Part shown: positions 1,343-58,205 of the stretch, one piece after another | Position numbering within the stretch: the first letter of the stretch is position 1 | How the letters are laid out: each line of letters opens with the position of its first letter | NCBI GenBank assembly: GCA_014138725.1 | Contig: JACJID010000004.1 | Location: forward strand, 806,001-870,000 | Origin: Kutzneria viridogrisea | Lineage (GTDB): Bacteria > Actinomycetota > Actinomycetes > Mycobacteriales > Pseudonocardiaceae | Direction: 5' to 3' | DNA length: 64,000 nt | Notes under the pieces: generated by a model | Databases searched by the model: none | What the model saw: the letters and a program-made list of their open reading frames with translations, nothing else | Told to the model about the DNA's origin: nothing | Translations under genes and position numbers: made by a program

Positions 1343-1397
1343 TGTCATGAAAGTGCCGTTCCTGGCACCTGACGCCAGGAACGGCACTTTCATGACA
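1343..1397. terminator. 3'-end palindrome copy 1 (class A)
   Basis: Two perfect 24-base arms (1343-1366 and 1374-1397) enclose a 7-base loop. The arm core is ATGAAAGTGCCGTTC. It lies between the ends of two convergent genes and can serve either strand. The minus-strand gene's TGA stop lies inside the right arm. No T-run follows either side, so this is a GC-rich hairpin rather than a classic intrinsic terminator. Confidence 0.7.
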
Positions 1398-3510
1398 TGT
1401 TCGGGGGCAGCACCAGGTTGCCGCTGCTGGTGGTCTCGCGGCGGCGCAGTTCGCCGACCTTGCCCTCGCGCAGCAGGTCCAGGAACAGGTCCACCACGTC
1501 CGGGTCGAACTGGGTGCCCCGGCCCAGTCGCAGCTGCTCGGCGGCCGCGGCCACGCTCAGCGCCGGCTGGTAGGGGCGGTCCACCAGCATGGCCGCCCAG
1601 GAGTCGCAGACGGCCAGGATCCTGGCCTCGACCCGGATCCCGTTGCCCACCAACCGGGACGGGTAGCCGTTGCCGTCGTAGCGCTCGTGGTGCTGGCGGA
1701 TGATGTCGGCCACCACGCCGAAGCCGGGCACCATCCTGGCCAGCCGGTAGCCGTACTCGGGGTGCTGGCGCACCAGCCGCCACTCGTCCTCGTTCAGCGC
1801 GGTGGGCTTGGTCAGCACCGCCTCCGGGATGACGATCTTGCCGATGTCGTGCAGCCGCCCGGCCAGCTCGGCGTTGCGGGCGGTGGCCTCGTCCTGGCCC
1901 AGTGCGGTGGCCAGGGTCATCGTCCACCGGCTGATGCACAGGCTGTGGTCGTGCGCGCCCAGCTGGGCGTCCACCTCGTCGGCCACGTGGCTGAGGTAGT
2001 CGATCATGGCGGTGTGGTCGGTGGTGGTGCTCGTGTCGGGCACCGCCGCCTCGCCGACCACGACCTGGTCCCGGCCGCGGGCCTTGGCCACGTACAGCGC
2101 GCGGTCGGCGGTGGCCACCAGCTCGTTGGGACTGTCCCCGTGCAGCGGGAAACAGGCGGCGCCCACCGAGACGGTGACGGCGATCCAGGTGTCCTCGGAG
2201 ACGGCCACGGGGCTGCTGGCCACCCGCTGGCGCAGCCGCTCGGCGATGGAGTGCAGCTCGCTCAGGCTCGCCTCGGGCACCAGCAGGGCGAACTCCTCGC
2301 CGCCGTAGCGGGAGAGCACGTCCCCGCCGCGGGAGGCCCCGCGCAACCGGGCCGAGATCTCGATCAGCGCCTGGTCCCCCGCCGGGTGCCCGTAGTGGTC
2401 GTTGATGGACTTGAAGTGGTCCACGTCGATGATGAACACCGCCAGCGAGCCTCCGGAGCGCCGGGCGCGGGCCACCTCGATGGGCAGCTGGGCCTCGAAG
2501 AAGCGCCGGGTGTGCAGGCCGGTCAGCGCGTCGGTGATGGCCAGCCGCCGCTGGTCGGAGACCAGCCCCGCCAGCCGGGCGATGGTCAGCCCGAACAGCA
2601 CGGCACAGGCCAGCGCGATCACCGAGATGTCGGTGAAGTCCCCCGCGGAGTTGCGCACGAACAGGGTGACCGGGGCGATCAGCGCCGCGGCGCACAGCGC
2701 GGTGATGCGGGCCGGGCCGATGGCGGTCTCGCGCACCGGGGACGGGTCGGTCAGCCGGGCCATCGTGGGGTGCAGGGCCGCGGCGCCCAGGGCCAGGTTG
2801 CCCGCCAGCCAGATGGCGTCCAGGAAGTTGCCCGCCTGGTAGACCCCGTCCAACTGCTGCGAGACGTACAGGGTGTCGGCGGCGACGAAGGCGAGCAGGT
2901 TGAAGGTCAGCAGGAAGAACGAGGCGGGACGACGGCCGCCGCCCAGGATCAGCCGCAGCGCGATGGTCAGCATCAGCAGGTCCATCACCGGGTACGCCAG
3001 CGAGGTGATCTTGACGACCATCGGCGCGTCCAGCCGGGCGTTGGGCGCGATCAGGTAGAGCCAGGACAGCATGGCCGCGCCCACGCCGATGACCGCGGCG
3101 TCGAGCAGGCCGGGCAGGTCGCGGCCGGGGGTGCGGCGGCGGATGAACATCAGCAGGCCGGCCACCACGAGCGGGTAGTGCGACAGGTACAGCGGGTCGG
3201 CCACGCCCGGGTAGTCCATCACCTGGAACGCGTAGTGCGCGAGGTAGAAGCTGGTGTCCGCGATGGCGTAGACCACCTGGCTCAGGCCGAGCATCAGCCA
3301 GGGCAGCCGGGGGCGCGGCCGGTACCGGTACAGCCCGTAGAGCACCGCGACCGCGGCCGAGACGCTGTCCAGGCAGTACAGCGTGATCCGGACGGCCAGC
3401 CCGGTGCCCTCGGCGGGCACCAGGTAGTACGCGACCAGGATGAGGGCGCCGACTGTCAGGTAGCCGATCCACACCCGGCTGAACTCGGTGCGCGGACCCG
3501 TCGCGTCCAT
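1390..3510 (-). CDS. membrane-bound GGDEF plus HD-GYP cyclic-di-GMP protein
   Basis: A 706-residue protein. The first ~320 residues contain about nine membrane segments. A diguanylate cyclase domain follows, with GGEEF near residue 403 and an upstream RGGD inhibitory site at the canonical five-residue spacing, so synthesis with product feedback is expected. The C-terminal ~190 residues are an HD-GYP phosphodiesterase domain with HDIGK near 554 and HHERYDGNGYP near 607. Making and breaking c-di-GMP in one chain, with HD-GYP replacing the commoner EAL domain, suggests a sensor-switched bifunctional enzyme. I chose ATG 3510 because AGGGG lies 6 bases upstream; a TTG at 3546 is possible. Its stop codon is inside the flanking palindrome. 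Confidence 0.9.
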   Translation of the reverse strand: MDATGPRTEFSRVWIGYLTVGALILVAYYLVPAEGTGLAVRITLYCLDSVSAAVAVLYGLYRYRPRPRLPWLMLGLSQVVYAIADTSFYLAHYAFQVMDYPGVADPLYLSHYPLVVAGLLMFIRRRTPGRDLPGLLDAAVIGVGAAMLSWLYLIAPNARLDAPMVVKITSLAYPVMDLLMLTIALRLILGGGRRPASFFLLTFNLLAFVAADTLYVSQQLDGVYQAGNFLDAIWLAGNLALGAAALHPTMARLTDPSPVRETAIGPARITALCAAALIAPVTLFVRNSAGDFTDISVIALACAVLFGLTIARLAGLVSDQRRLAITDALTGLHTRRFFEAQLPIEVARARRSGGSLAVFIIDVDHFKSINDHYGHPAGDQALIEISARLRGASRGGDVLSRYGGEEFALLVPEASLSELHSIAERLRQRVASSPVAVSEDTWIAVTVSVGAACFPLHGDSPNELVATADRALYVAKARGRDQVVVGEAAVPDTSTTTDHTAMIDYLSHVADEVDAQLGAHDHSLCISRWTMTLATALGQDEATARNAELAGRLHDIGKIVIPEAVLTKPTALNEDEWRLVRQHPEYGYRLARMVPGFGVVADIIRQHHERYDGNGYPSRLVGNGIRVEARILAVCDSWAAMLVDRPYQPALSVAAAAEQLRLGRGTQFDPDVVDLFLDLLREGKVGELRRRETTSSGNLVLPPNMS

Positions 3511-3749
3511 CGGTGGCCCCTCATCCGGAATTGGTTGGCGAATCAATTATCCGCCTGGCCGAAACCACCAGGCATGATGCCCCAAAACACCCGGTTGCGG
3601 AACCGTTACCCGGTCCTTCGGCCATAACGGTCCCCAGCTTAGGGGATCTTCGCGCACTGGTCTGCGTGACCGTGCCGGAGTGGCTCGAAGAGGCACCGGG
3701 CCTGTGGCTCACGGGCAAGTTCTGTGAATACCCCGATGGGGGTGAAGGG

Positions 3750-3794
3750 CCGGTGTGGGCTGGCGAAGCCGCCGCGCAAGCCAACCCACACCGG
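3750..3794. repeat. 15-bp inverted repeat upstream of dehydratase
   Basis: Arms 3750-3764 and 3780-3794 (CCGGTGTGGGCTGGC and its near complement) enclose a 15-base loop. The single non-complementary position is C/A on plus-strand RNA but becomes a G-U wobble on minus-strand RNA. It lies about 90 bases before the dehydratase start. It could be a leader hairpin, an insulator between the divergent genes, or part of an antisense transcript. Confidence 0.45.
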
Positions 3795-3836
3795 GGTCTG
3801 GGAGGGGGCCTGTCCGGCACCCCTTGCTGAAAACAC

Positions 3837-3852
3837 AGTAAACGTTTTCACT
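3837..3852. promoter_or_regulatory. LacI-family operator
   Basis: AGTAAACGTTTTCACT is a near-palindrome centred on CG (AAAC/GTTT core) matching the LacI/GalR operator pattern. It lies 35 bases upstream of the dehydratase start, and a LacI-type regulator gene follows that dehydratase, so repression of the pair by that regulator is the simplest reading. Confidence 0.65.
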
Positions 3853-3886
3853 GGAGCTGTCCAGACCACTGAGAGGAGCCGCCCTC

Positions 3887-5596: not shown

Positions 5597-5642
5597 GACA
5601 AGATCGGCGTAAGGTTCGCATTGTCCGGAAGGAGTGGTGTCG

Positions 5643-6635: not shown

Positions 6636-6636
6636 G

Positions 6637-7452: not shown

Positions 7453-7559
7453 AGCAGGGGTCCTTCCGTCTGTACGGCCAGTGGTAACACGGTGTAGCGG
7501 GACGGTAGCCCTGGGCGCCACCCGCCGAAAGTCGGTGCATAACAATTCGCAACCTGTCC

Positions 7560-7582
7560 CCTTGTTGGATTGTTCAACAAGG
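7560..7582. promoter_or_regulatory. candidate operator before DUF969 operon
   Basis: Perfect 8-base arms CCTTGTTG and CAACAAGG are separated by seven bases, about 42 bases upstream of the DUF969 start, in the region shared with the divergent protease. The TTGT/ACAA layout suits a GntR- or FadR-type repressor, but no such gene is adjacent. Confidence 0.5.
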
Positions 7583-7623
7583 CTTAGCCTTCCGAGCACC
7601 CCACCCGAGAGAGGAGCACGCTG

Positions 7624-8295: not shown

Positions 8296-9257
8296 TCGAC
8301 GCCGAGTGGCTGTACTGGCTGTGCGGGCTGTTCTTCCTGGCCAACGCGGTGCTCTGCGGGCGGGAGAGGCGCTACGGGGCGGTGGCTTTCTGGGCCCTGC
8401 TGGGACTGTCCTTCTGCTACAGCACCTTCGTGGTGGCCAAGACCGCGGCGGCATGGCCGCTGGGCCTGGCCGTGCTCGTGATCGCCGGGCTGGCCGGGTT
8501 CGGCGCGGTGCGCAAGGCGGAACTGCCCGCGCCCACCGAGGCCGAGCAGGAAAGCTCAGCAGCCAAGCTGGGCAACAGGTTGTTCGTGCCCGCGCTGATG
8601 ATCCCGTTGGTGGCACTGGTGTTCGCCACGATGCTGGCCTCGATCACCGTGGGCGGCAAGCCCTTGCTGGCCGCGGGCACCGCCACGCTGACCGGGCTCG
8701 GCGCCGGAGCACTGATCGCCGTCGCCGTCGGCCTGGTGTTGGTGCGGCCCGCGCAGCCGGTGGGCCTGGGCGCGCCGCTGCGCGAGGGCAGCCGCCTGTT
8801 GCAGTCCATCGGCTGGGTCGTGCTGCTGCCGCAGATGCTGGCGGTGCTGGGCCTGCTGTTCGACAAGTCCGGTGTGGGCAAGCAGGTCGGCACCGTGCTG
8901 TCGGGGCTGCTGCCGGGCGGCTCGCTGCTGGCCGCGGTGGTCGTCTACTGCGTGGGCATGGCCCTGTTCACCGTGGTCATGGGCAACGCCTTCGCCGCCT
9001 TCCCGGTGATGACCGCCGCGGTGGGCTGGCCGGTGCTGATCCAGCAGTTCCACGGCAATCCCGCACTGGTGTTCGCGGTCGGCATGCTCGCCGGGTTCTG
9101 CGGCACCCTGTGCACCCCGATGGCCGCCAACTTCAACATCGTGCCCGCCGTGCTGCTGGAGATGAAGGACCGCTACGGGCCGATCAAGGCCCAGCTGCCG
9201 ACCGCGATCCCTTTGCTGGCCTGCAACATCGCGATCATGTACTGGCTGGGGTTCTGA
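8292..9257 (+). CDS. DUF979 family membrane protein
   Basis: A 321-residue protein with eight to ten membrane segments, starting MIDAEWLYWLCGLFFLANA. It overlaps the DUF969 gene by four bases and the pcp start by one base, so the three genes form one tightly coupled operon. Conserved-looking blocks include MGNAFAAFPVMTAAVGWP and FCGTLCTPMAANFNIVPA, which resemble the membrane-embedded loops of ion-coupled carriers. With DUF969 it probably makes a two-component permease. The central loop (residues ~75-95) is charged and cytoplasmic by prediction. Transport activity is inferred, not shown. Confidence 0.8.
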   Translation: MIDAEWLYWLCGLFFLANAVLCGRERRYGAVAFWALLGLSFCYSTFVVAKTAAAWPLGLAVLVIAGLAGFGAVRKAELPAPTEAEQESSAAKLGNRLFVPALMIPLVALVFATMLASITVGGKPLLAAGTATLTGLGAGALIAVAVGLVLVRPAQPVGLGAPLREGSRLLQSIGWVVLLPQMLAVLGLLFDKSGVGKQVGTVLSGLLPGGSLLAAVVVYCVGMALFTVVMGNAFAAFPVMTAAVGWPVLIQQFHGNPALVFAVGMLAGFCGTLCTPMAANFNIVPAVLLEMKDRYGPIKAQLPTAIPLLACNIAIMYWLGF

Positions 9258-9898
9258 TGCGCACCGTGCTGCTGACCGGGTTCGAGCCCTTCGGCGGGGA
9301 GCGGGTCAACCCGTCCTGGCAGGCCGTGTCCCTGCTCGGCGAGCGCCAACCACTGTCCGGTGTGGACATCCGCGTCGCGGTGCTGCCCTGCGCCTTCGAC
9401 ACTTCGCTCGACGCCCTGCGCGCGGCCGTCACCGAGCACTCCCCCGAGCTCGTGATCTGCACCGGCCAGGCGGGTGGCCGTCACGCCGTCACACCGGAAC
9501 GGGTCGCCGTCAACCTCGACGACGCCCGCATCCCCGACAACGCGGGCAGCCAACCCGTGGACGTGCCGGTGGTCGAGGGCGGGCCCGCCGCCTACTTCAC
9601 CAGCCTGCCCGTCAAGGCCTCCGTCGCCGCCATGCGTGCCGCCGGGGTGCCCGCCGCCGTCTCGTACACCGCCGGCACCTTCGTCTGCAACCACGTGTTC
9701 TACGGGCTGATGCACCTGCTCGCCACGGAGTTGCCCGGTGTGCGCGGCGGCTTCGTGCACGTGCCCTACACCCCGGAGCAGCTCGCCGACGCACCGAGCA
9801 TGTCCGTCGCCACCATCGCCGAGGGCCTCGCCGCCCTCGTGCGGACCTGCCTGGACACGGTCGAGGATCTGTCGGTTCCCGCCGGGACCCTGCACTGA
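9257..9898 (+). CDS. pcp: pyrrolidone-carboxylate (pyroglutamyl) peptidase I
   Basis: A 213-residue cysteine peptidase that removes N-terminal pyroglutamate from peptides. The triad is intact at the classical positions: E81 (TPERVAVN), C144 (TFVCNHVFYG) and H168 (GGFVHVPY). The start GFEPFGGERVNPSW is also typical. The ATG overlaps the DUF979 stop by one base. As the last gene of the DUF969-DUF979 operon, it likely processes a peptide or amino acid handled by that permease. A class-B palindrome begins 13 bases after its stop and probably ends the transcript. Confidence 0.93.
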   Translation: MRTVLLTGFEPFGGERVNPSWQAVSLLGERQPLSGVDIRVAVLPCAFDTSLDALRAAVTEHSPELVICTGQAGGRHAVTPERVAVNLDDARIPDNAGSQPVDVPVVEGGPAAYFTSLPVKASVAAMRAAGVPAAVSYTAGTFVCNHVFYGLMHLLATELPGVRGGFVHVPYTPEQLADAPSMSVATIAEGLAALVRTCLDTVEDLSVPAGTLH

Positions 9899-9911
9899 CC
9901 CACCCCGTTGT

Positions 9912-9964
9912 GCCGTGAAGGTGGCTTTCACCGCGCTGGGCGCGGTGAAAGCCACCTTCACGGC
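9912..9964. terminator. 3'-end palindrome copy 2 (class B)
   Basis: Perfect 25-base arms (9912-9936, 9940-9964) enclose a TGG loop; the arm core is GTGAAGGTGGCTTTC. It follows the pcp stop and precedes the GH27 promoter region, so it most likely separates the two transcripts. Confidence 0.7.
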
Positions 9965-9991
9965 GTTGGTGCGGCGACTTTACCTTCGCGA

Positions 9992-10022
9992 ATCAAACAA
10001 GATCAAACATCGGATATATCCG
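9992..10022. promoter_or_regulatory. direct repeats plus palindrome upstream of GH27 gene
   Basis: ATCAAACA occurs twice with a 10-base period (9992-9999, 10002-10009), i.e. one helical turn, immediately followed by the perfect 12-base palindrome CGGATATATCCG (10011-10022). The stretch is AT-rich compared with its surroundings and lies about 130 bases before the glycosidase start. It is probably a regulator-binding or promoter region. Confidence 0.45.
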
Positions 10023-10148
10023 GCACAGAACTGCTGTGACACCTACTTGTGGTGTATTGACACCACCTGGGAGTTCCCTGTGTGATGGGCACCACTGATC
10101 GAGTTCGTTCGTTTCTGATCGGTTGTGTGTCACGGACAAGGAGGTCCG

Positions 10149-13419: not shown

Positions 13420-13468
13420 CGTGAAGGTGGCGTTCGCTGCGCTGGGCGCAGCGAACGCCACCTTCACG
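13420..13468. terminator. 3'-end palindrome copy 3 (class B)
   Basis: Perfect 23-base arms (13420-13442, 13446-13468) enclose a TGG loop. The core is a class-B variant (GTGAAGGTGGCGTTCGC). The stop codon of the leftward hypothetical gene (13464-13466) is inside the right arm. Confidence 0.7.
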
Positions 13469-13934
13469 GCGCACGTGACCCAGGCCGCCGCACCGTGTCC
13501 CCGCGTGTCGGCCCGGTGCAGGCCCGCGAGCCCGGGTGCCCGGACACGGCGGCGGCCCAGGCCAGCGTGCCCGCCAACGCCTTGACCGCCTCGCTGTCGA
13601 ACACGACCTCGACCTGTAGGTCGTTGGGCAGCAGCAGGTACAGCTCCATCGGTGGGCGGCCGGTGCAGTCGTGCTCCCACCAGCGGTGCGGGTTCACGCC
13701 GAGCAGGCGCTCGGGGTGTACCGGGTGCTGGCAGGGCACGCCGATGCTGTCGGCCTCGCGCAGCGCGGCGATCAACGCGCCGACCGCGCGGGGCTCCAGC
13801 GAGACGGTGAACTCGGGCAGGCCCGCCAGGCCGAGCGTGACCCAGCCGTCCCGGGGACCGGGGACCACCGTGGTGGTCGCGCCGGTGCCCGAGCCGGTCG
13901 TGCAGGGCACGCCGCGCGGAGTGAGTTGGTGCAT
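13464..13934 (-). CDS. hypothetical protein
   Basis: A 156-residue protein I do not recognise. From residue 30 to about 125 it looks like one alpha/beta domain (WVTLGLAGLPEFTVSLEP, then ALIAALREADSIG, then MELYLLLPNDLQVEVVFDSEAVKALAGTL). The C-terminal ~25 residues are basic and look disordered. Three Cys residues are scattered. ATG 13934 has AAGGG six bases upstream. Codon use is normal for the genome, so it is likely a real gene. The TGA stop is formed by the palindrome, so the disordered tail may be an extension acquired when that element arrived. Confidence 0.6.
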   Translation of the reverse strand: MHQLTPRGVPCTTGSGTGATTTVVPGPRDGWVTLGLAGLPEFTVSLEPRAVGALIAALREADSIGVPCQHPVHPERLLGVNPHRWWEHDCTGRPPMELYLLLPNDLQVEVVFDSEAVKALAGTLAWAAAVSGHPGSRACTGPTRGDTVRRPGSRAP

Positions 13935-14043: not shown

Positions 14044-15633
14044 TCAGTACAGCGATTCGTAGCCCGGATCAACCCGAACGTGGAGCAGGGTGGGCACTGT
14101 CGTGGTACCCAGCCCGGCCAGTGCCTCGCGCAGTTGCTCGGGCGTGTGCACGGCCCGAGCCGCGCAGCCCATGCCCTTGGCCAGCGCGGTGAAGTCGAGT
14201 CCGCCCAGCTCGGTGCCGGGAACCTTGGCCACCCCGGCGCTGTCGGCCATCGAACGCAGCGCCCCGTACTGGGTGTTGTCCAGGATCACGAAGGTCACCG
14301 GCACGTGCTCCCGCGCGGCGGTCCACAGCGCCTGGATGCCGTACATCGCCGAACCGTCGCCGATCACGGCCACCACCGGCCGGTCCCCCGACACCATGCG
14401 CACCCCGACGGCGGCGGGCAGCCCCCAGCCCAGCACGCCGCTGGCCATGGTGAAGAAGCCCCGGTCCCGGGAGGTGATCGGCAGGTGGTCGTGCAGGTCG
14501 TTGCGGTGGCTGGGGATCTCCTCCACGAGCACCCCGTCCGAGGGCAGCGCCTCGGACAGCGCCGCCAGCACGTAGGCACCCGACATCAGGCCGCCCACCG
14601 CGGGCGCCGCTGGCTCGGCCGCCCGCTCCCGCGGTGACGGCGCCGACCGCCCGCTGTCGGTCACCTGCTCCAACAGCGCCTGGGCGGCCAGCTTCGGCGT
14701 GGCCAGCAACCCGGTTCCCTCAGGGGCCCAGGCCAGCACGTCCGGGTCGTCGTGGATCAGGTGCAGCGGCGGCAGGTCCGGCCCGTCCTCGGGGGTCTGC
14801 ACGTGGTAGGTGAACGCCGACGCGCCCAGCGCCACCACGCAGTCGTAGGCCGACAGCGCCTGGGTGAGCTGCTTGCGGGCCGGGGGCAGGAAGCCCGCGA
14901 ACAGGGCGTGGTCCTCGGGGAACGCGCAGCGCGGCGACATCGGGCTCGCCCACACCGCCGCCCTGGTCCGCTCCGCCAGCCGCACCACCTCCTCCACCGC
15001 GTGGTCGGCGTCCACCGAGGCGCCCACGACCAGCGCGGGCCGTTCGCTGGCGTCCAGGGCCCGCGCCACCTCGGCGATCGCCGCGGCGTCGGGCCCGAAC
15101 CCGGCGGTGCGCGGGCGCAGCGGCACCGGCCCCGCGGGCTGGTCCCAGTCGTCGACCGGCACGGACAGGAACACGGGCCCGTACGGCGGTTGGGTCGCGA
15201 TCTGCAATGCGCGCGCCAGCGCCGCGGGCACGTCGGCCGCGCGCGCGGGCTGATTGCTCCACTTGACGTACGGCTTGGGGAACTCCGGCGCGTCGATCGC
15301 CCCCAGGAACGGGTCCCCGGTCAGCAGCTCACGCGCCTGCTGGCCCGCGATGACCACCAGCGGGGTGCGGTTGCGGTACGCCGTGACCAGGCCGCCCAGC
15401 CCGTGGCCCACCCCGCCCGAGGAGTGCAGGTTCACCACCACCGGGCCGCCGCTGAACTGCGCGTAGCCGTCGGCCATGGCCACCACGCAGGACTCCTGCA
15501 GGGCCAGCACGTAACGGAAGTCGTCCGGCCAGTCCCCCAGGAACGGCAACTCGGTCGAACCGGGGTTGCCGAACACGGTGGTCGTACCCCAGGCCCGCAT
15601 CAGCTCTCGGCAGGCATCTCGCACTGTACGCAC
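14044..15633 (-). CDS. mdlC: benzoylformate decarboxylase (ThDP-dependent)
   Basis: A 529-residue thiamine-diphosphate enzyme. The residues known to matter in Pseudomonas benzoylformate decarboxylase are all matched: S26 (GNPGST), E47 (LALQESC), H70 (VNLHSSGG) and H277 (FTYHVQT, matching H281). The ThDP/Mg motif begins GDGSAMYGIQALW and ends ILDN. It would decarboxylate an aryl 2-oxo acid such as phenylglyoxylate to an aldehyde, as in the mandelate pathway. No mandelate racemase or dehydrogenase is nearby, so the true substrate may differ. The start is GTG 15633, with a weak AGGA site. Confidence 0.85.
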   Translation of the reverse strand: MRTVRDACRELMRAWGTTTVFGNPGSTELPFLGDWPDDFRYVLALQESCVVAMADGYAQFSGGPVVVNLHSSGGVGHGLGGLVTAYRNRTPLVVIAGQQARELLTGDPFLGAIDAPEFPKPYVKWSNQPARAADVPAALARALQIATQPPYGPVFLSVPVDDWDQPAGPVPLRPRTAGFGPDAAAIAEVARALDASERPALVVGASVDADHAVEEVVRLAERTRAAVWASPMSPRCAFPEDHALFAGFLPPARKQLTQALSAYDCVVALGASAFTYHVQTPEDGPDLPPLHLIHDDPDVLAWAPEGTGLLATPKLAAQALLEQVTDSGRSAPSPRERAAEPAAPAVGGLMSGAYVLAALSEALPSDGVLVEEIPSHRNDLHDHLPITSRDRGFFTMASGVLGWGLPAAVGVRMVSGDRPVVAVIGDGSAMYGIQALWTAAREHVPVTFVILDNTQYGALRSMADSAGVAKVPGTELGGLDFTALAKGMGCAARAVHTPEQLREALAGLGTTTVPTLLHVRVDPGYESLY

Positions 15634-15665: not shown

Positions 15666-15706
15666 CTTGCACCGTGGCGTGAAGGGCTTGCACCGTGGCG
15701 TGAAGG
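15666..15706. repeat. 20-bp direct duplication feeding into palindrome
   Basis: CTTGCACCGTGGCGTGAAGG occurs at 15666-15685 and again at 15687-15706. The second copy runs straight into the left arm of palindrome copy 4. This looks like a partial duplication of the palindrome's edge and flank, by slippage or insertion. Confidence 0.75.
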
Positions 15707-15750
15707 TGGCTTTCACTGCGCTGGGCGCAGTGAAAGCCACCTTCACGCCA
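15696..15750. terminator. 3'-end palindrome copy 4 (class B)
   Basis: Perfect 26-base arms (15696-15721, 15725-15750) with a TGG loop, the longest copy here. It holds the TGA stop (15743-15745) of the leftward frameshifted gene and lies upstream of the mdlC start. Confidence 0.7.
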
Positions 15751-16146
15751 CTGGGACGGGCTCGATCCCGAACTTCTGGGCTACGAGGCGCCAGAAGAGC
15801 GGGACGGCCTCCACACTGGGCCGGACGAGGTGGTCGTCGTGCCCGGTGGTCGAGCGGTGCTCGATGAGGACGTGGCCCGAGCCCACGTGGCCGGAGGAGG
15901 GTGATCGGACCACGAGGACGGCGATCGGCGGGGCCTCGGGCACAGGCCGGGCAGCGACCACCAAGTCGTGCATGGAGGTCAGTGCCGCCAATTGGCGATC
16001 GGCCCCGCAGACGCGCACGCTGTCGACGATCTCGGCCATGTGGCGGAACTCGGGTGTCCGGCGGCCATCTCGTGGAAGGCCAGGGCGATCTGCGACCAGG
16101 GCCGCTCGGTGAAGTGGTCCTGCCAGGCCCGCGAGGTTGCCCGCAC
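15743..16146 (-). pseudogene. hypothetical gene split by a frameshift
   Basis: Two overlapping leftward frames join into one sensible protein of about 134 residues. The first runs from GTG 16146 and reads RAWQDHFTERPWSQIALAFH and then EMAAGHP. The second continues as EFRHMAEIVDSVRV and ends FGIEPVPVA. The switch lies near 16046-16056, in the minus-strand context CACCCGAGTTCC, where one extra C would restore H-P-E-F. Neither half looks complete alone. It is either a genuine one-base deletion or a sequencing error in a homopolymer. I do not recognise the family. The intact product would be a small soluble alpha/beta protein. Its stop is supplied by palindrome copy 4. Confidence 0.6.
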
Positions 16147-16171: not shown

Positions 16172-16220
16172 CATGAAAGTGCCGTTCGTTGCACTCAACG
16201 CAGGGAACGGCACTTTCATG
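16172..16220. terminator. 3'-end palindrome copy 5 (class A, imperfect)
   Basis: Arms 16172-16192 and 16200-16220 (21 bases, two non-Watson-Crick positions) enclose a 7-base loop. The core ATGAAAGTGCCGTTC matches copies 1 and 7. The stop codon of the amino-acid dehydrogenase (16216-16218) lies in the right arm. Confidence 0.65.
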
Positions 16221-17334
16221 ACGGGTTCGGCAATCGCCCGCGCAACCGCATGGCCTCGCGGACGCGGGTCTGGGCGAGGTCGCGGGCGGCTTCGTGGGTG
16301 GTGCGGCCGAGCGCGCGGGCGTGGTCCAGCACGGTGACGGCGTTGGCGCGCAGCTTGTCGGCGATGACGGCGTAGATCGCGGCGGGGTCGGGGCGCAGCG
16401 CGGAGTAGCGGGCGTCCATGGCGTACGCCGCGGCGACCACACCCCCGGCGTTGGCGATGAAGTCGGGCAGCACGGTGACCCCGCGCGCGGCGAGGACCTG
16501 CTGCGCGGCGGGGGTCGTGGGCAGGTTGGCGCCCTCGACCACGACCCGGGCGCCGATCCGCCCGGCGAGGTCGACGTCGATGACGTCCTGGGTCGCGGCG
16601 GGCACGAGCACCTCGGCGGGCACGAGCAGTTCCTCGCCCAGTGCCAGCAACCGGCCACCTCGGTACTCGGTGACGGTCCGGTCCCCGGGCACGGCGAGCA
16701 GGGCGGCCACGTCCAGGCCGTCGGGGTCGTGCCGGACCCCCAGCGCGCTGGACACGGCGACCACGGTGGCGCCGAGTTCGGCGTACCGCTTGGCGGCGGC
16801 ACGTCCGACGGCACCGAAGCCCTGGATGGCGACCCGCGCGCCGGTCAGCTCGGTGACGGCGTCAGTGGCCTCGGCGAGGCCGTACCCGGTGACGCCGAGT
16901 TGGTCGTACGGGACGCCGCCCAGCTCGGCGGGGGTACCCACGGCGGCGCCGCGATCACGCAGTTCGTCCTGCACGACGGCGGCGTCGCGCTCGGTCATGC
17001 CCACGTCCAGCCCGAGCACGTACTCGGCGGGCACCTCGTTGGACAGCGCCCGCACGAACGCGCGCAGCACGGCCTCCTTGTCGGCGCGGGCCGGGTCGTA
17101 GCGGATCCCGGCCTTGGCCCCGCCGTGGAACAGGTCCACCCCGGCCCACTTCCAGGTCATCACCCTGGCCAGCCGGGCGACCTCGGCCACGGTCAGCCCC
17201 GGGCTCATCCGGGTGCCGCCCTTGCCCATCCCGCGGGCGGTGTTGTCGATCACGAGCACCCCGCGCATACCGGTGCGGGTGTCGGACACGCAGACGACTT
17301 TCTCCGGACCCCACTCGTCCATCAGCTCGAACAT
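16216..17334 (-). CDS. Glu/Leu/Phe/Val dehydrogenase family protein
   Basis: A 372-residue NAD(P)-dependent amino-acid dehydrogenase. The catalytic lysine is K74 in FHGGAKAGIRYDP. The Rossmann motif is GFGAVGR near residue 199, and PDFIANAGGV near 300 is the conserved C-terminal block. The fold interconverts an amino acid with its 2-oxo acid and ammonia. GGAKAG is intermediate between the glutamate (GGGKGG) and leucine/valine (GGGKA) branches, so the substrate is uncertain. It is divergent from the aldehyde dehydrogenase / glutaryl-CoA dehydrogenase operon, where glutamate released by transamination could be its substrate. The start ATG 17334 has a close GGGAG; M5 (17322) is an alternative. 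The stop lies in palindrome copy 5. Confidence 0.85.
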   Translation of the reverse strand: MFELMDEWGPEKVVCVSDTRTGMRGVLVIDNTARGMGKGGTRMSPGLTVAEVARLARVMTWKWAGVDLFHGGAKAGIRYDPARADKEAVLRAFVRALSNEVPAEYVLGLDVGMTERDAAVVQDELRDRGAAVGTPAELGGVPYDQLGVTGYGLAEATDAVTELTGARVAIQGFGAVGRAAAKRYAELGATVVAVSSALGVRHDPDGLDVAALLAVPGDRTVTEYRGGRLLALGEELLVPAEVLVPAATQDVIDVDLAGRIGARVVVEGANLPTTPAAQQVLAARGVTVLPDFIANAGGVVAAAYAMDARYSALRPDPAAIYAVIADKLRANAVTVLDHARALGRTTHEAARDLAQTRVREAMRLRGRLPNPS

Positions 17335-41926: not shown

Positions 41927-41981
41927 TGTCATGACAGTGCCGTTCGAGACACTAGATGTCTCGAACGGCACTGTCATGACA
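41927..41981. terminator. 3'-end palindrome copy 6 (class A variant with compensatory changes)
   Basis: Perfect 25-base arms (41927-41951, 41957-41981) enclose CTAGA. The core reads ATGACAGTGCCGTTC instead of ATGAAAGTGCCGTTC, and the opposite arm has the matching change, so pairing is kept. It starts five bases after the leftward glyA stop. Confidence 0.75.
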
Positions 41982-41985: not shown

Positions 41986-43248
41986 TCAGGCCCAGCCCGG
42001 CATCGGGTAGCCCGCCAGCAGCTCGGAGATCTGCGCGGCGATGCGCTCGATGCCCGCCTCGTCCCCGGCGTTCGCGGCCGTCACGGTGTCGTCGATCCAC
42101 TGGGCCAGCTGCGGCATCTGCTCGACACCCAGGCCGCGCGTGGTGATCGCGGCGGTGCCCAGCCGGATGCCGGACGGGTCGAAGGGCTTGCGCGGGTCGA
42201 AGGGCACGGTGTTGTAGTTCAGCTCGATGCCCGCGCGGTCCAGGGCCTTGGCCGCGGGCTTGCCCGCGATGCCCTTGGACTCCAGGTCGACCAGGATCAG
42301 GTGGTTGTCGGTACCGCCGGAGACCAGGTCGAAACCGCGCTCCACCAAGGATTCCGCCAGCGCCTTGGCATTGGCCACGATGGCGTGCGCGTAGTCGCGG
42401 AACCCCGGCGCCGCGGCCTCCTTGAGCGCCACGGCGATGCCCGCGGTGGTGTGGTTGTGCGGGCCGCCCTGCAGGCCGGGGAACACCGCCTTGTCCAGCG
42501 CGGCGGCGTGCTCCGCGTCGGACATCAGCATGGCGCCGCGCGGGCCGCGCAGGGTCTTGTGCGTGGTGGTGGAGATGACCTGGGCGTGGCCCACCGGCGA
42601 GGGGTGCGCCCCGCCCGCGATCAGCCCCGCGATGTGCGCGATGTCGGCCACCAGCACCGCGCCCACCTCGCGGGCGATCTCGGCGAAGGCCGGGAAGTCG
42701 ATCGTGCGCGGGATGGCCGTGCCCCCGCAGAAGATCAGCTTGGGCCGCTCGGCCCTGGCCAGGTCGCGCACCTCGTCCAGGTCCACCCGGCCGGTCTCCT
42801 TGGTGACCCCGTAGCGCACGGCCCTGAACCACTTGCCGGTCGCCGACACCGACCAGCCGTGGGTCAGGTGCCCGCCCATCGGCAGGGCCATGCCCATCAC
42901 CGTGTCGCCGGGCTGGAGGAACGCCAGGTAGACCGCCAGGTTGGCCGGGGAACCGGAGTAGGGCTGCACGTTGGCGTGGTCCACGCCGAAGACGTCCTTG
43001 GCGCGCTGCACGGCCAGCGTCTCGATCGGGTCGATGAACTGCTGGCCCTCGTAGTAGCGGCGCCCCGCGTACCCCTCGGAGTACTTGTTGGTCAGCACCG
43101 TGCCGGTGGCCTCCAGCACGGCGGTGGACACGTAGTTCTCGGAGGCGATCAACCGGATCTTGTCGTGCTGCCGCTTGGCCTCGGCCTCGACCAGTCCGGC
43201 CAGTTCCGGGTCGAACCCGGTGAGGGCGGTGAGGGCAGGCTGGTGCAT
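41986..43248 (-). CDS. glyA: serine hydroxymethyltransferase
   Basis: A 420-residue PLP enzyme that converts serine and tetrahydrofolate to glycine and methylene-tetrahydrofolate. PLP lysine K231 is in STTTHKTLRGPRG. SENYVS, YSEGYAGRRYY and the Pro-rich substrate loop are present. ATG 43248 has GGGAGA six bases upstream, and that site falls inside a long inverted repeat that is part of a ZTP riboswitch, so translation is expected to rise when folate one-carbon supply is short. The gene ends five bases before palindrome copy 6. Confidence 0.96.
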   Translation of the reverse strand: MHQPALTALTGFDPELAGLVEAEAKRQHDKIRLIASENYVSTAVLEATGTVLTNKYSEGYAGRRYYEGQQFIDPIETLAVQRAKDVFGVDHANVQPYSGSPANLAVYLAFLQPGDTVMGMALPMGGHLTHGWSVSATGKWFRAVRYGVTKETGRVDLDEVRDLARAERPKLIFCGGTAIPRTIDFPAFAEIAREVGAVLVADIAHIAGLIAGGAHPSPVGHAQVISTTTHKTLRGPRGAMLMSDAEHAAALDKAVFPGLQGGPHNHTTAGIAVALKEAAAPGFRDYAHAIVANAKALAESLVERGFDLVSGGTDNHLILVDLESKGIAGKPAAKALDRAGIELNYNTVPFDPRKPFDPSGIRLGTAAITTRGLGVEQMPQLAQWIDDTVTAANAGDEAGIERIAAQISELLAGYPMPGWA

Positions 43249-43251: not shown

Positions 43252-43369
43252 GGATCTCCCGCGTCGGTCGTCCGCTCCGGCGGCGGTACCCAGGCGCGCG
43301 ACGCCGCCGGACAGTCGCTCCCCGGTGGTCGATTCCACCTGAACACGCCAGTCGCGACGCGGGAGATCC
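43252..43369 (-). promoter_or_regulatory. ZTP (pfl) riboswitch controlling glyA
   Basis: The minus-strand leader contains the ZTP-aptamer blocks in order: GUCGCGACUGGCG, CAGGUGGA, CCACCGGGGAGCGAC (together 43314-43358) and, after a linker, CGCGCCUGGG (43287-43296), the pseudoknot partner. The outer 15-base arms 43355-43369 and 43252-43266 are perfectly complementary, and the second contains the glyA ribosome site (43255-43260). ZTP riboswitches are known upstream of glyA and purine or folate genes. A translation-level switch is inferred. Confidence 0.85.
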
Positions 43370-45890: not shown

Positions 45891-45899
45891 CGGGTCCTT

Positions 45900-54577: not shown

Positions 54578-55686
54578 TCATCGACCTGCCCTCGACCACG
54601 ACCTCCCAGGTCAACAGCAAGCTGGTCGAGGTCCGCGAGCAGGGTGGCGCGGTGGCGCTTGGCCGCGTGCTGACCCTGGTCATCGTCACCGACGACGGCA
54701 CCAAGACCGAGGAGGCCATCGCCGCGGCCAACGAGGCCAGCCGCGAGCACCCGTGCCGGGTGATCGTGCTGGCCAAGGGCGCGCGCAAGGCGGCGGCCAG
54801 GCTGGACGCGCAGATCCGCGTGGGCGGGGACGCGGGCGCCAGCGAGGTGATCGTGCTGCGCCTGTACGGCCCGCTGGCCGAGCAGGCCGCGAGCTGCACG
54901 GTGCCGCTGCTGCTGCCCGACGCCCCGGTGGTGGCCTGGTGGCCCTCGGAGGCGCCCGAGGTGCCCGCCGAGGACCCGATCGGCCAGCTGGCCGCCCGGC
55001 GGATCACCGACTCGGCCGCCGAGAAGAACCCGATCAAGGCGCTGGACCAGCGGCGCAAGTCCTACGCCGAGGGCGACACCGACCTGGCGTGGACCCGGCT
55101 GACCAACTGGCGCGCCCAGCTGGCCAGCGCGCTGGACCTGCCGCCCTTCGAGAAGATCACCAGCGCCACCGTGGTCGGCGAGTCCGACTCCCCGTCCACG
55201 GAACTGCTGGCCGGGTGGCTGGCCTGGTCGCTGAAGATCCCGGTGACCAGAGCGAAGGCCACCTCCGGTGAGGGCATCGTGCAGGTGTACCTGGAGCGGC
55301 GCTCCGGGCCGGTGGAGCTGGTCCGGCCGGACGGCAAGACCGGCACGCTGACCCAGGCCGGGCAGCCCGAGCGGCGCATCGCGCTGCAACGGCGCACGGT
55401 GCGCGACTGCCTGTCCGAGGAGCTGCGCAGGCTGGACCCGGACGAGATCTACGAGGCGGCGCTCAAGGCGGCGGCCAAGGTGGTCAAGGGCAGGGCGCCC
55501 AGCGCCAAGTCCGCGGCCAAGCCCGCCGCGGCCAAGGCGGCACCGAAGGCGGCGGCTTCCAAGGCGGCGGCACCGAAGGCCAAGGCCAAGGCCCCCGCCG
55601 ACAAGCCCGCGGCGGACAAGCCGGACACGGCCAAGCCCGCTCGCAAGGCCGCGGCCAAGAAGGTCACCGCCAAGGCGGATTCGTGA
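54574..55686 (+). CDS. opcA: OpcA, Zwf assembly/activator protein, with basic Ala/Lys tail
   Basis: A 370-residue OpcA family protein. The core (residues ~1-305) begins MIIDLPSTTTSQVNSKL and includes PVVAWWPSEAPEVPAEDPIG and the DCLSEELRRLDPD end. OpcA binds and activates glucose-6-phosphate dehydrogenase. Residues ~305-370 are an added tail of Lys, Ala and Pro (AKSAAKPAAAKAAPKAAASK-type repeats) like histone-H1 or HupB tails. That is unusual for OpcA and suggests nucleic-acid or membrane-surface contact, or simple repeat expansion. The GTG overlaps the zwf stop. Confidence 0.93.
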   Translation: MIIDLPSTTTSQVNSKLVEVREQGGAVALGRVLTLVIVTDDGTKTEEAIAAANEASREHPCRVIVLAKGARKAAARLDAQIRVGGDAGASEVIVLRLYGPLAEQAASCTVPLLLPDAPVVAWWPSEAPEVPAEDPIGQLAARRITDSAAEKNPIKALDQRRKSYAEGDTDLAWTRLTNWRAQLASALDLPPFEKITSATVVGESDSPSTELLAGWLAWSLKIPVTRAKATSGEGIVQVYLERRSGPVELVRPDGKTGTLTQAGQPERRIALQRRTVRDCLSEELRRLDPDEIYEAALKAAAKVVKGRAPSAKSAAKPAAAKAAPKAAASKAAAPKAKAKAPADKPAADKPDTAKPARKAAAKKVTAKADS

Positions 55687-55729
55687 GCGAGCTTGCGAGC
55701 GAATCATCGAGCACAGGGCTGGCGCGCAG

Positions 55730-55759
55730 CGCCGCACCGAGCGCCAGCGAGGTGCGGCG
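55730..55759 (+). promoter_or_regulatory. hairpin abutting the pgl start codon
   Basis: Perfect arms CGCCGCACC (55730-55738) and GGTGCGGCG (55751-55759) enclose 12 bases. The right arm ends at the base before ATG 55760 and takes in part of the GAGG ribosome site. This could limit pgl translation relative to opcA. The sequence before it repeats GAGC-type words (GCGAGCTTGCGAGCGAATC). Confidence 0.6.
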
Positions 55760-56479
55760 ATGAGCAGTCCTGACGTGGTGGTGCACGGCAGCGGCGAGGT
55801 GCTCGCCGCTGCCGCGGCCGCCCGGCTGATCACCAGCCTGGTGGACGCCCAGACCGCTCGCGGTACCGCCTCGCTGGTGCTCACCGGTGGGCGGACCGGC
55901 AACGCCGTGCTGGAGCACGTCCGCTCCAGCCCGGCCCGCGACGCCGTGGACTGGTCGCGGGTGGACCTGTACTGGGGCGACGAACGGTTCCTGCCCTCCG
56001 GTCACGCCGACCGCAACGAGACGCAGGCCCGCGCCGCGCTGCTGGACCACCTGCCGCTGGACCCGGCGCGGGTGCACGCCGTGCAGCCCTCCGACGGCCG
56101 GTTCGGGGACGACCCCGACGCCGCCGCCGAGGACTACGCCGCCGTGCTGCCCGAGCGGTTCGACGTGTGCCTGCTCGGGGTCGGTGAGGAGGGGCACACC
56201 GCCTCGCTGTTCCCCGACTCGCCCGGGGTGCACGAGACCTCGCGTGCCGTGGTGGCGGTGCGCGACTGCCCCAAGCCGCCGCCGACCAGGGTCAGCCTCA
56301 CGCTGCCCACCATCCGGCGGTCCACGCAGGTGTGGCTGATGACCACCGGCTCGGCCAAGGCCGAACCCGTGGCGCTGGCCCTCGGCGGTGCCACCGAGGT
56401 GCGGATCCCCGCCGCGGGTGCCCGCGGTCTGGACCGCACCCTGTGGCTGCTCGACTCCTCGGCGGCCGCCAAGCTCTGA
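55760..56479 (+). CDS. pgl: 6-phosphogluconolactonase
   Basis: A 239-residue DevB-type lactonase that hydrolyses 6-phosphogluconolactone made by Zwf. Seen are LVLTGGRTGNAVLEHV, VDLYWGDERFLPSGHADRN and LLGVGEEGHTASLFPDSP with the conserved catalytic His. It is the last gene of the tkt-to-pgl cluster, 73 bases after opcA rather than overlapping it, with a hairpin at its ribosome site. Palindrome copy 7 follows its stop by 14 bases. Confidence 0.95.
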   Translation: MSSPDVVVHGSGEVLAAAAAARLITSLVDAQTARGTASLVLTGGRTGNAVLEHVRSSPARDAVDWSRVDLYWGDERFLPSGHADRNETQARAALLDHLPLDPARVHAVQPSDGRFGDDPDAAAEDYAAVLPERFDVCLLGVGEEGHTASLFPDSPGVHETSRAVVAVRDCPKPPPTRVSLTLPTIRRSTQVWLMTTGSAKAEPVALALGGATEVRIPAAGARGLDRTLWLLDSSAAAKL

Positions 56480-56493
56480 CCCACCCTCAGTGC

Positions 56494-56542
56494 CATGAAA
56501 GTGCCGTTCCTGGCGTTGAACGCCAGGAACGGCACTTTCATG
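56494..56542. terminator. 3'-end palindrome copy 7 (class A)
   Basis: Perfect 22-base arms (56494-56515, 56521-56542) with loop TTGAA; the core is ATGAAAGTGCCGTTCCTGGC, as in copy 1. It ends the pentose-phosphate cluster and lies 230 bases before the histidine-kinase gene. Confidence 0.7.
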
Positions 56543-56566
56543 ACATGGGGTGTTTACAGGTCAACA

Positions 56567-56584
56567 GTCATCAACAGTGATGAC
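56567..56584. promoter_or_regulatory. candidate operator upstream of histidine kinase
   Basis: The perfect inverted repeat GTCATCA-ACAG-TGATGAC overlaps a TCAACAGT direct repeat (56561, 56571). The region (56560-56700) is AT-rich for this genome and about 190 bases from the kinase start, so it probably belongs to that gene's promoter. Confidence 0.45.
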
Positions 56585-56771
56585 ATAACTTCGCAATGTG
56601 ACGCTGCGTTACTCCTTAAGGCCCAGTCTTCTCGGGGTTCATCACTGCGGGTGACATGTCGGCGACTTGACGTGTGCTGATGCACAGACATTTGGCAGCG
56701 CGCGTCCCGATCGGGTGTTAGGACTGTCTAAGAGCACAAGACTCACTCGCCCGCCCGAGGAGGACCGAGTC

Positions 56772-58151
56772 GTGCCAAACAGGCCGTGTCACGCCGTGCC
56801 CGACCCCGCTGTGCCCGAACACGAGGTAGGTCTCCCGCTGCCACGCCAGTCCACAGGCACAACCTGGGCCGATCCGTCCCTCCAGCAGTACCGTGTCTCC
56901 TCGGGGCAGGCCGGAGACGAAGGAGTCACCGAAGCCGTGGACGCGATCCCGGATCCCAGCCTCGTCGCCGCGGTCATCGGCGACGTGCGCGGTCCCCTGC
57001 TGACCAGATTCGGCCGCGCGGTGCTGGCCTTCGGCAAGCGCCACCGTCAGGGCCTCGCCGACGTGGGCCTCATGCTGTTCGCCCTGCTGGACATGTTCCT
57101 GGTGTTCCCGAAGAACGCCGAGGTGTACTCCTACGTGCTCACCGGGGTCGCGGTGGCCGCACTGGTGCTGCGCCGTCGCTACCCGTTCCTGGTGCTGCTG
57201 ATCTGCGTGCCCGGCTTCCTCGCCGGCTGGTCGGCGCTGGCCGGGATGATCGCCCTGTACGAGCTGGCCAAGCGCCGGACGTGGTGCTGGCAGACCGCGG
57301 TCGGCACCGTGATGGTGGTGCTCTGCTACTTCGTGACCTGGCCGCTGGACAAGTTCCTGGCCGAGAGCTGGAACGAACAGGCCCGCGACCTGCTGTGGGG
57401 CGTGATCCACGCGGGCGCCCCGCTGGCGCTGGGCCTGCTGGTGACCACCTACAAGGAGCTGCGCCGCCGGATCAGCGAGCTGGCAACGATCCGCGAGCGC
57501 GAGGAGGCGCTCCAGTCGATGGCCATCCGCACCGACGAGCGCACCAAGCTGGCCCGCGAGATGCACGACGTGGTCTCGCACCAGGTCACGCTGATCGCCA
57601 TGCAGGCGGGCGCGCTGAAGGTCACGGCCCAGGACGAGGCGTCCCGGGAGATCGCGAAGACGATCCGCAGGCTGTCCACCCGCACCCTGGAGGAGCTGCG
57701 CCAGCTGGTCGGCGTGCTGCGCGCGCCCACCGATGACGAGTGCGTGCCGGACCTGGCCGACCTGGAGCGCATGGTGTCCGACTCGGGCATCCCGGTGACG
57801 CTGACCCTGGAGGGCCCGCTGGACGAGCTGCCGCAGCCGGTGTCCGGGGCGGCCTACCGCACGGTGCAGGAAGCGCTGACCAACGTCGGCAAGTACGCGC
57901 CCGCCGCGGCCACCTCGGTGCTGGTGCAGGCCAACAAGCGGGAACTGCTCGTGCAGGTGCGCAACGAACGCCCCCGAGGGCAGCGGACCCCTGCCCTGCC
58001 CTCGGGGGGTCACGGGCTGGTCGGGCTCACCGAGCGGGCCGAGTTGCTCGGCGGCAGTTTCCACGCGGCGCCCAGCGTGGACGGCGGCTTCGTGGTGACC
58101 TCCCGCTTCCCGCTGGGAGTGAGCACCCTGCCCGCGGCCCACGCCGTCTAG
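56772..58151 (+). CDS. orphan sensor histidine kinase (HisKA_3, NarL-type partner class)
   Basis: A 459-residue membrane kinase. A ~75-residue soluble N-terminus precedes five or six membrane segments (residues ~95-235) with little outside loop, so it probably senses the membrane or an intramembrane signal. Then comes a short coiled coil, the phospho-accepting H-box REMHDVVSHQVTLIAMQAGAL, the N-box QEALTNVGKYAPAA and the G-box GHGLVGLTERAELLGG. This class signals to LuxR/NarL-type response regulators, but no regulator gene adjoins it. GTG 56772 is eight bases from an AGGAGG site. Confidence 0.9.
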   Translation: MPNRPCHAVPDPAVPEHEVGLPLPRQSTGTTWADPSLQQYRVSSGQAGDEGVTEAVDAIPDPSLVAAVIGDVRGPLLTRFGRAVLAFGKRHRQGLADVGLMLFALLDMFLVFPKNAEVYSYVLTGVAVAALVLRRRYPFLVLLICVPGFLAGWSALAGMIALYELAKRRTWCWQTAVGTVMVVLCYFVTWPLDKFLAESWNEQARDLLWGVIHAGAPLALGLLVTTYKELRRRISELATIREREEALQSMAIRTDERTKLAREMHDVVSHQVTLIAMQAGALKVTAQDEASREIAKTIRRLSTRTLEELRQLVGVLRAPTDDECVPDLADLERMVSDSGIPVTLTLEGPLDELPQPVSGAAYRTVQEALTNVGKYAPAAATSVLVQANKRELLVQVRNERPRGQRTPALPSGGHGLVGLTERAELLGGSFHAAPSVDGGFVVTSRFPLGVSTLPAAHAV

Positions 58152-58156
58152 AACGC

Positions 58157-58205
58157 CGTGAAGGTGGCTTTCACTGCGCTGAGCGCAGTGAAAGCCACCT
58201 TCACG
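58157..58205. terminator. 3'-end palindrome copy 8 (class B)
   Basis: Arms 58157-58180 and 58182-58205 (23 usable pairs, effective loop TGA). The core GTGAAGGTGGCTTTCACTGCGC is identical to copy 4. It sits between the convergent kinase (stop six bases away) and rbpA (stop 14 bases away) genes and may serve both. Confidence 0.7.

What the first reader, a model, noticed from the sequence alone, without database searches (positions are those of the whole stretch)
1343..58205. A family of eight near-perfect palindromes at gene 3' ends, in two related sequence classes
Copies lie at 1343-1397, 9912-9964, 13420-13468, 15696-15750, 16172-16220, 41927-41981, 56494-56542 and 58157-58205. Class A arms contain ATGAAAGTGCCGTTC with 5-7 base loops. 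Class B arms contain GTGAAGGTGGCTTTC with TGG/TGA loops. The two cores agree at 11 of 15 positions, suggesting one origin. All eight lie immediately downstream of at least one gene and none is in a divergent promoter gap. They look like a dispersed 3'-end hairpin (terminator, RNA stabiliser, or passive mobile element) that keeps its own sequence and not only its ability to pair.
Basis: partly seen in the sequence, partly recalled or inferred. Interest (0 to 1): 0.78.

Follow-up and report, generated by a model that had tools for sequence, protein, structure and literature searches.

The report
Gene-end hairpin cassettes of Kutzneria
The eight palindromes belong to a family of short hairpin cassettes, present in hundreds of copies in this genome, that sit just after genes where an ordinary transcription stop signal would be, and that in a related genus appear to be exchanged for one another between species.

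Summary
All eight palindromes are real. The window lies in a Kutzneria genome (Pseudonocardiaceae) with 154 strict and 382 relaxed matches; reversed-pattern controls give 0. Each copy is two facing 13-base boxes exactly 17 bases apart: all 60 facing arm pairs within 81 bases in a 1.26-Mb sample. The same 13-17-13 plan, with other letters, occurs across the family (67 of 150 genomes, up to 492 copies) but hardly outside it.

Near-perfect copies hug stop codons: 40 of 48 within 25 nt, 8.7 expected. Convergent gaps with one rarely hold another hairpin: 2 of 17, against 44 of 74 without. At homologous gene ends, relatives often carry ordinary hairpins. In one related genus a single gene end carries either of two unlike elements (9 and 7 of 16 species), even between two species whose comparable flanks are identical.

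Best reading: exchangeable 3'-end hairpins acting as two-way terminators or RNA ends, REPIN-like, but without a detected REP transposase in this genome. Termination and the copying mechanism are inferred.

The parts
1343..1397 (.). Element 1 (class A): between the stops of a TENA/THI-4-like gene (679-1335 +) and a GGDEF/HD gene (1390-3510 -); its TGA is the called stop codon of the latter
   Evidence: 24-bp perfect arms, 7-nt loop; RNA fold -51.7 kcal/mol
9912..9964 (.). Element 2 (class B): its 47-nt core begins 16 nt after a pyroglutamyl peptidase gene (9257-9898 +)
   Evidence: -54.7 kcal/mol
13420..13468 (.). Element 3 (class B, GCGTTC variant): at the end of ORF 13464-13910 (-), which has no Pfam hit
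   Evidence: -49.1 kcal/mol
15696..15750 (.). Element 4 (class B): at the end of a weak ORF 15743-16039 (-), core 99 nt from the start of 14044-15600 (-)
   Evidence: -57.4 kcal/mol
16172..16220 (.). Element 5 (class A, imperfect near the loop): its TGA is the called stop codon of a Glu/Leu/Phe/Val dehydrogenase gene (16216-17334 -)
   Evidence: -35.2 kcal/mol
41927..41981 (.). Element 6 (class A): its core ends 8 nt from the stop of the serine hydroxymethyltransferase gene (41986-43248 -)
   Evidence: -50.5 kcal/mol
56494..56542 (.). Element 7 (class A): its core begins 15 nt after the 6-phosphogluconolactonase gene (55760-56479 +), where 42 of 57 related loci read have a hairpin
   Evidence: -44.9 kcal/mol
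58157..58205 (.). Element 8 (class B): its core begins 6 nt after a histidine kinase gene (56937-58151 +); ORF 58219-58566 (-) converges on it (missed by my caller; a gene is called at the homologous place in several congeners)
   Evidence: -46.0 kcal/mol

Best explanation
The palindromes are copies of a Pseudonocardiaceae family of short cassettes: two facing 13-base boxes (GAARG-NNN-CYTTC or a variant) around a 17-base, largely self-complementary spacer, with some 6-8 further paired bases outside. Placed within about 25 nt of a stop codon they form a very stable RNA hairpin, readable from both sides, that takes the place of the ordinary intrinsic terminator and marks the 3' end of one gene or of two convergent genes (termination without a U-tract, or an exonuclease block). 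The cassettes are exchanged as units: within a genome the arms are kept alike, and at one homologous gene end related species carry unlike versions. I infer that copying is ectopic and templated, for example repair of breaks at the cruciform from another copy, and that template switching between the arms keeps them complementary. Shown: anatomy, placement, absence of other hairpins beside them, pairing with compensatory change, unlike elements in one slot in a related genus. Inferred: termination, break-and-copy, and any protein that reads the boxes.
For: Placement: 40 of 48 near-perfect copies placed in a gap lie within 25 nt of a stop (simulated mean 8.7, maximum 19 of 48 in 2000 runs); 3 are divergent (mean 11.5). 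Replacement: another hairpin is present in 2 of 17 convergent gaps with a near-perfect copy and in 44 of 74 without any copy (Fisher p 0.0004; gaps of 40-250 nt: 2 of 12 against 30 of 48). Eight of 13 convergent gaps with a single near-perfect copy are 80 nt or less, so hold little else. At the pgl end 42 of 57 related loci have a hairpin, 36 of them starting within 25 nt, against 7 of 57 for the same scan inside the gene; congeners have hairpins at other homologous ends. Pairing: 92.3% Watson-Crick against 74.0% after dealing 3' letters anew (maximum 76.6%), with several two-sided changes. Unit: 60 facing arm pairs at spacer 17 and none at any other spacer from 0 to 81; 10 of 102 arms lie outside listed copies; 97 of 114 listed family box pairs have spacer 17. 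Swapping: 9 species carry a three-box and 7 a two-box element, first box 15-18 nt after the same stop; G107 and G599 have no difference in the 113 flank columns where both have letters yet differ in type; at a second site five species differ in content between aligned flanks.
Against: Only 1 of 49 element-gene-end pairs has 4 or more T in the 8 bases after the palindrome (ordinary hairpins here: 14 of 102), so canonical termination is not predicted, and U-less termination in actinobacteria is disputed (PMC12288462, passages and its reference list). 29 of 79 copies are imperfect, often in arrays, and only 6 of 24 of those with a 3' end are near a stop. Two of 6 copies with readable homologous ends in congeners had no hairpin there by my criterion. 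A fixed 17-base spacer is not needed for termination. Element-bearing convergent gaps are shorter (median 81 against 171 nt), which lowers the chance of a second hairpin; in tandem gaps the effect is not significant (0 of 18 against 59 of 354, p 0.09). No clear target duplication was seen. The swap count could not be resolved on a tree.
Confidence: 0.67

Rival explanations
1. Primarily a selfish replicating repeat of the REPIN kind, moved by an unidentified transposase; its place after stop codons is simply where insertions are tolerated, and any terminator role is incidental.
For: The doublet is the unit and single arms are rare; conserved ends with a spacer conserved in length and largely in pairing but not in letters, as described for REPINs (PMC3116915, passages); arrays; copy number differs widely between related genomes; the element supplies the called TGA stop in 11 of 45 near-perfect copies with a 3' end.
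Against: No PF01797 (RAYT/Y1) match in the own genome, nor in seven genomes with 285-492 box pairs. Near-perfect copies sit far closer to stops than uniform placement in intergenic space predicts and seldom share a convergent gap with another hairpin. No clear target duplication.
Confidence: 0.3
2. Binding sites of a DNA-binding protein (chromosome organiser or gyrase site); the 30-bp step between boxes and their own dyad symmetry reflect protein recognition of DNA, and the hairpin is secondary.
For: Boxes are themselves near-palindromes at a fixed 30-bp step across genera, and some genomes have head-to-tail arrays with that step; several arm positions do not vary among 50 near-perfect copies.
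Against: Letters differ between species while spacing and pairing stay; the spacer also covaries; strong preference of near-perfect copies for gene 3' ends and scarcity of other hairpins beside them.
Confidence: 0.15
3. Ordinary intrinsic terminators that came to look alike by convergence.
For: Similar slots to ordinary hairpins; some hairpins in relatives also have GAAGG/CCTT-like flanks.
Against: Identical 47-mers at separate sites (11 of 79 copies share a 47-mer with another), a fixed spacer and over a hundred copies of a core with no strict match in six congeners are hard to reach by convergence.
Confidence: 0.04
4. DNA-uptake signals whose inverted pairs serve as terminators, as in Neisseria (recalled).
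For: Inverted pairs at gene ends.
Against: Single arms are few: 10 of 102 outside listed copies, 1 of them inside a gene.
Confidence: 0.02

Closest known systems
REPINs (REP doublets forming hairpins), Pseudomonas (PMC3116915, passages seen)
   Same: Two conserved inverted boxes round a spacer that keeps its length and hairpin capacity but not its letters; hundreds of extragenic copies; arrays; single boxes the minority
   Different: No RAYT transposase match in the own genome or in 12 of 14 element-bearing genomes checked; shorter (43-59 bp; REPIN ends are 71 or 110 bp apart); near-perfect palindrome overall; near-perfect copies tied to stop codons, whereas REP doublets are described as random in extragenic space
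REP/BIME elements (PMC3733652, passages seen)
   Same: Extragenic palindromes, single or in mosaic clusters, hypothesised to act in termination and mRNA stability
   Different: GTAG beside 2 of 50 copies; CGTC beside 11 of 50, mostly at a position inside the paired outer arm; no RAYT here; the unit is a doublet
I-shaped (U-less) intrinsic terminators of mycobacteria (PMC12288462, passages seen)
   Same: Hairpin within 50 nt of the stop, no U-tract, G+C-rich actinobacteria
   Different: To my knowledge (recalled) those are not a sequence family; these are dispersed copies of one cassette with a fixed spacer
Ordinary gene-end hairpins of Pseudonocardiaceae
   Same: Same slots after the same genes
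   Different: Letters differ from species to species and gene to gene in what I read; more T after the stem

Membership tests
REPIN / REP | Short extragenic palindromes in high copy | tested here: met
   382 relaxed matches; of 79 sampled, 1 inside a called gene and 1 at a contig edge
REPIN / REP | Two inverted boxes with a spacer of constant length and pairing; singles rare | tested here: met
REPIN / REP | RAYT (Y1 transposase, PF01797) in the genome | tested here: not met
   0 matches in own genome; 1 of 7 Kutzneria genomes has a marginal match, 23.8 bits; 2 of 14 element-bearing genomes have one; the control rings in E. coli and 4 others of 14
REPIN / REP | Unpaired GTAG or CGTC tag at one end | tested here: not met
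   GTAG on one side in 2 of 50; CGTC on one side in 10 and on both in 1 of 50, 9 of its 13 occurrences at the paired position -4
Intrinsic terminator | Stable hairpin shortly after a stop codon | tested here: met
   near-perfect copies; imperfect copies mostly not (6 of 24)
Intrinsic terminator | U-tract after the stem | tested here: not met
   1 of 49
Intrinsic terminator | Transcripts end there | not testable with these tools
   no RNA 3'-end data
MITE | Terminal inverted repeats with target-site duplication | tested here: inconclusive
   no excess for k 4-8; small unassessed excesses for k 2-3 at some offsets (e.g. 8 against 3.9, 4 against 1.4); ends not known exactly
Rfam RNA family | Match at gathering score | tested here: not met
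   only a ZTP riboswitch in the window
DNA uptake sequence | Excess of single copies, also in genes | tested here: not met

The most novel reading that the evidence does not exclude
A new class of mobile or exchangeable terminator cassette: a family-wide population of 13-17-13 palindromes that compete for the terminator slots of genes, replace ordinary terminators and each other without changing the flanks, and are kept to a strict 30-bp grammar by an unidentified, RAYT-independent protein or repair process.
Probability: 0.3. Interest if true: 0.82.

Novelty: new variant of a known kind. Interest (0 to 1): 0.64.

Why it matters
If right, the stop signals of many genes in a group of antibiotic-producing bacteria are not simply inherited gene by gene but turn over as interchangeable cassettes. 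That gives a natural system in which terminator exchange, concerted evolution of repeats and the spread of REPIN-like elements without a RAYT can be followed directly. It may also offer ready-made two-way terminators for actinomycete engineering.

Tried and rejected
Tried and rejected: RAYT/Y1 transposase as mover (two element-bearing genomes, G028 and G104, do have matches, so a role there is open). Viral or plasmid carriage: 0 viral contigs with the general pattern, no plasmid match for one typed 55-mer. Target-site duplication (small unassessed excesses for k 2-3 only). Uptake sequences. Rfam, window only. Literature: none of the held PMC texts contains any of six core strings. Searches for palindromes and terminators in Actinobacteria, Amycolatopsis and Pseudonocardiaceae showed nothing on this family in the titles and abstract starts listed (15 of 66 listed; 3 of 3; 10 of 557; 4 of 4; 2 of 2), so absence from print is not shown. 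'Satellites in the prokaryote world' names Amycolatopsis mediterranei in a table only (passages). Papers and 53 other than the two opened were seen in the listing only. A tree from 159 flank columns (34 variable) was too weak to count swaps: 5 changes against 5.5 for shuffled labels.

Limits: gene calls come from a home-made caller that missed ORF 58219-58566. The near-perfect threshold (19 of 23 pairs) was chosen after seeing the data. The 1.26-Mb sample is C2:1-1.2 Mb (5000 N) plus the window, about 12% of the genome. The 382 matches were not filtered for pairing. Position lists of the genome searches are truncated; their counts are whole. Relaxed matches in congeners include a few that look like coding sequence. 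No call names genus g16.
Full report
1. The observation. They take places 1-7 and 9 in the tool's ranking of the window's 41 inverted repeats. Each folds as RNA at -35.2 to -57.4 kcal/mol, and no shuffle of 200 does as well. The window is G000:C4:806001-870000 of a 10.25-Mb genome. Same-genus genomes G126, G109 and G142 have contigs of the same length as named Kutzneria records at the same gene, so the host is a Kutzneria, family Pseudonocardiaceae; its species name was not shown.

2. Copy number and anatomy. A strict pattern with a free spacer of 5-35 bases matches 154 times, the reversed control 0 times. A relaxed fixed pattern with up to 2 mismatches matches 382 times, control 0. In 1.2 Mb of contig C2 plus the window I found 79 copies (71 + 8): 50 near-perfect (19 or more of 23 pairs) and 29 imperfect. 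Facing arms occur at spacer 17 in 60 cases and at no other spacer from 0 to 81; 14 larger distances (82-115) remain, probably neighbours in arrays. Of 102 arms, 10 lie outside listed copies, 1 of them in a gene. So the unit is the doublet. Pairing is kept through two-sided changes: 92.3% Watson-Crick against 74.0% when 3' letters are dealt anew, maximum 76.6% of 500. Some positions do not vary among the 50 (for example G6, T7, G8, C10, C19 of the 47-mer, counted from 0), so letters are constrained too. 73 of the 79 47-mers are distinct, and 11 copies share a 47-mer with another. Conservation continues about 4 bases outside the core.

3. Two forms. Near-perfect copies are mostly solitary (38 of 50 have no other within 400 nt); imperfect ones mostly clustered (20 of 29). 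Some clusters share longer text: similar mosaics are seen at C2:57592, 148843 and 518710 (by eye).

4. Placement. Of the 48 near-perfect copies placed in a gap, 21 are convergent, 24 tandem and 3 divergent; uniform placement in intergenic space gives 9.6, 26.9 and 11.5 on average. 40 lie within 25 nt of a stop codon, against a mean of 8.7 and a maximum of 19 in 2000 simulations. The two left out are one inside a called gene and one at a contig edge. Nine lie between two stops both within 25 nt, and in 11 of 45 the element's own TGA is the called stop. Against this, imperfect copies are near a stop in only 6 of 24 cases.

5. They stand where terminators stand. Of 98 convergent gaps of 20 nt or more, 17 hold a near-perfect copy, and 2 of those hold another hairpin; of 74 without any copy 44 do (p 0.0004); 7 with imperfect copies only were left out. 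For gaps of 40-250 nt it is 2 of 12 against 30 of 48. In tandem gaps it is 0 of 18 against 59 of 354 (p 0.09). Divergent gaps without a copy give the background, 14 of 150. At the end of the 6-phosphogluconolactonase gene I read 58 of the 80 loci returned (L206-L263); 57 gave an end, and 42 of these have a hairpin, 36 starting within 25 nt, against 7 of 57 for the same scan inside the gene (a few loci are outside the family). One, Lentzea kentuckyensis, has a 13-17-13 element there. At the histidine kinase end (element 8) G126, G087 and G019 have hairpins by script and G142 by eye. In a 144-kb stretch with 12 copies, homologous gene ends were readable for 6 copies; for 4 at least one relative has a hairpin, for 2 none does by my criterion, and in one slot (two copies) G019 has its own 13-17-13 element. 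No U-tract follows: 1 of 49, against 14 of 102 for ordinary hairpins.

6. Phylogenetic spread. The strict Kutzneria core occurs in 3 of 297 family genomes: 153 in the own genome and 1 each in two genomes of genus g16, 0 in six congeners. A general pattern of the plan matches 31 of 249 family genomes in 10 of 46 genera (own 308; congeners 0-72) and, of a phylum sample of 296, the own genome only. Box pairs with a free spacer of 3-33 match 67 of 150 family genomes in 29 of 46 genera, up to 492 copies; of 114 forward rows listed (17 genomes) 97 have spacer 17. In a class sample of 246, 15 genomes besides the own have a match: fourteen with 1-2, and one of a sister family (G801) with 19, whose 12 listed forward rows have spacer 18 nine times and 17 three times. 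Genus g31 has head-to-tail arrays with a 30-bp step. Letters differ by species; spacing and pairing largely stay.

7. Swapping. In genus g16, one convergent gap in five species has flanks that align but different content between them: arrays, a single element or other hairpins. At a second gene end, 9 of 16 species carry a three-box element and 7 a two-box one (one of these broken, G182), first box 15-18 nt after the stop. G107 and G599 have no difference in the 113 flank columns where both have letters, yet carry different types. A tree from 159 flank columns (34 variable) gives 5 type changes, no better than shuffled labels (mean 5.5), so the number of exchanges is not known. Compensatory changes are seen between species: GAAGG/CCTTC and GAAAG/CTTTC changed at both ends, and a C-G to T-A change in the element shared by G107 and G592 (by eye).

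8. Mechanism. Shown: cassette anatomy, placement, scarcity of other hairpins beside near-perfect copies, covariation, unlike elements in one slot. Inferred: that RNA polymerase stops or exonucleases halt at the hairpin; that copies spread by ectopic templated repair at cruciforms; that template switching keeps the arms matched (ideas recalled, from no call). No RAYT was found in the own genome or in 12 of 14 element-bearing genomes checked.

9. Known kinds. The REPIN description, conserved inverted ends with a spacer whose critical features are length and hairpin capacity and with common compensatory changes, fits closely (PMC3116915, passages). Two features fail here: RAYT and the GTAG/CGTC tag of REPs (PMC3733652, passages). 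As terminators they would be of the U-less type claimed for mycobacteria, which is contested (PMC12288462, passages). I therefore file them as a REPIN-like variant that most likely works as a gene-end hairpin, not as REPINs.

Noticed in passing
window 43281-43365 (-): ZMP/ZTP riboswitch (RF01750, 45.6 bits) directly upstream of the serine hydroxymethyltransferase gene.
   Followed up: no
G000:C2 60810, 148684, 534449, 755887, 1046470: A second set of strong palindromes with a core like GGGCGGGACTCGCG in the same genome (by eye).
   Followed up: no
G000:C2 432939 and 494285: Two palindromes sharing GAAGCGCCGACACGCGGGG, perhaps a third family.
   Followed up: no
G000:C2 57592-57860, 148843-149080, 518710-518950: A longer mosaic repeat that contains several imperfect copies and shared text between them (by eye).
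   Followed up: partly
G000:C2 318968-462370: A 143-kb stretch without copies, containing an ORF of about 7833 aa and only 4 convergent gene pairs.
   Followed up: no
G801 (same order, another family): 19 box pairs whose listed spacers are mostly 18 rather than 17 (9 of 12 forward rows listed).
   Followed up: no
G104 and G028: The only two of 14 element-bearing genomes checked that have Y1 transposase matches (4 and 3); link to the elements not examined.
   Followed up: no
window 58219-58566 (-): ORF in a region 84-86% identical in DNA to all six congeners, with a gene called at the homologous place in several of them; missed by my caller, so element 8 lies in a 67-nt convergent gap.
   Followed up: partly
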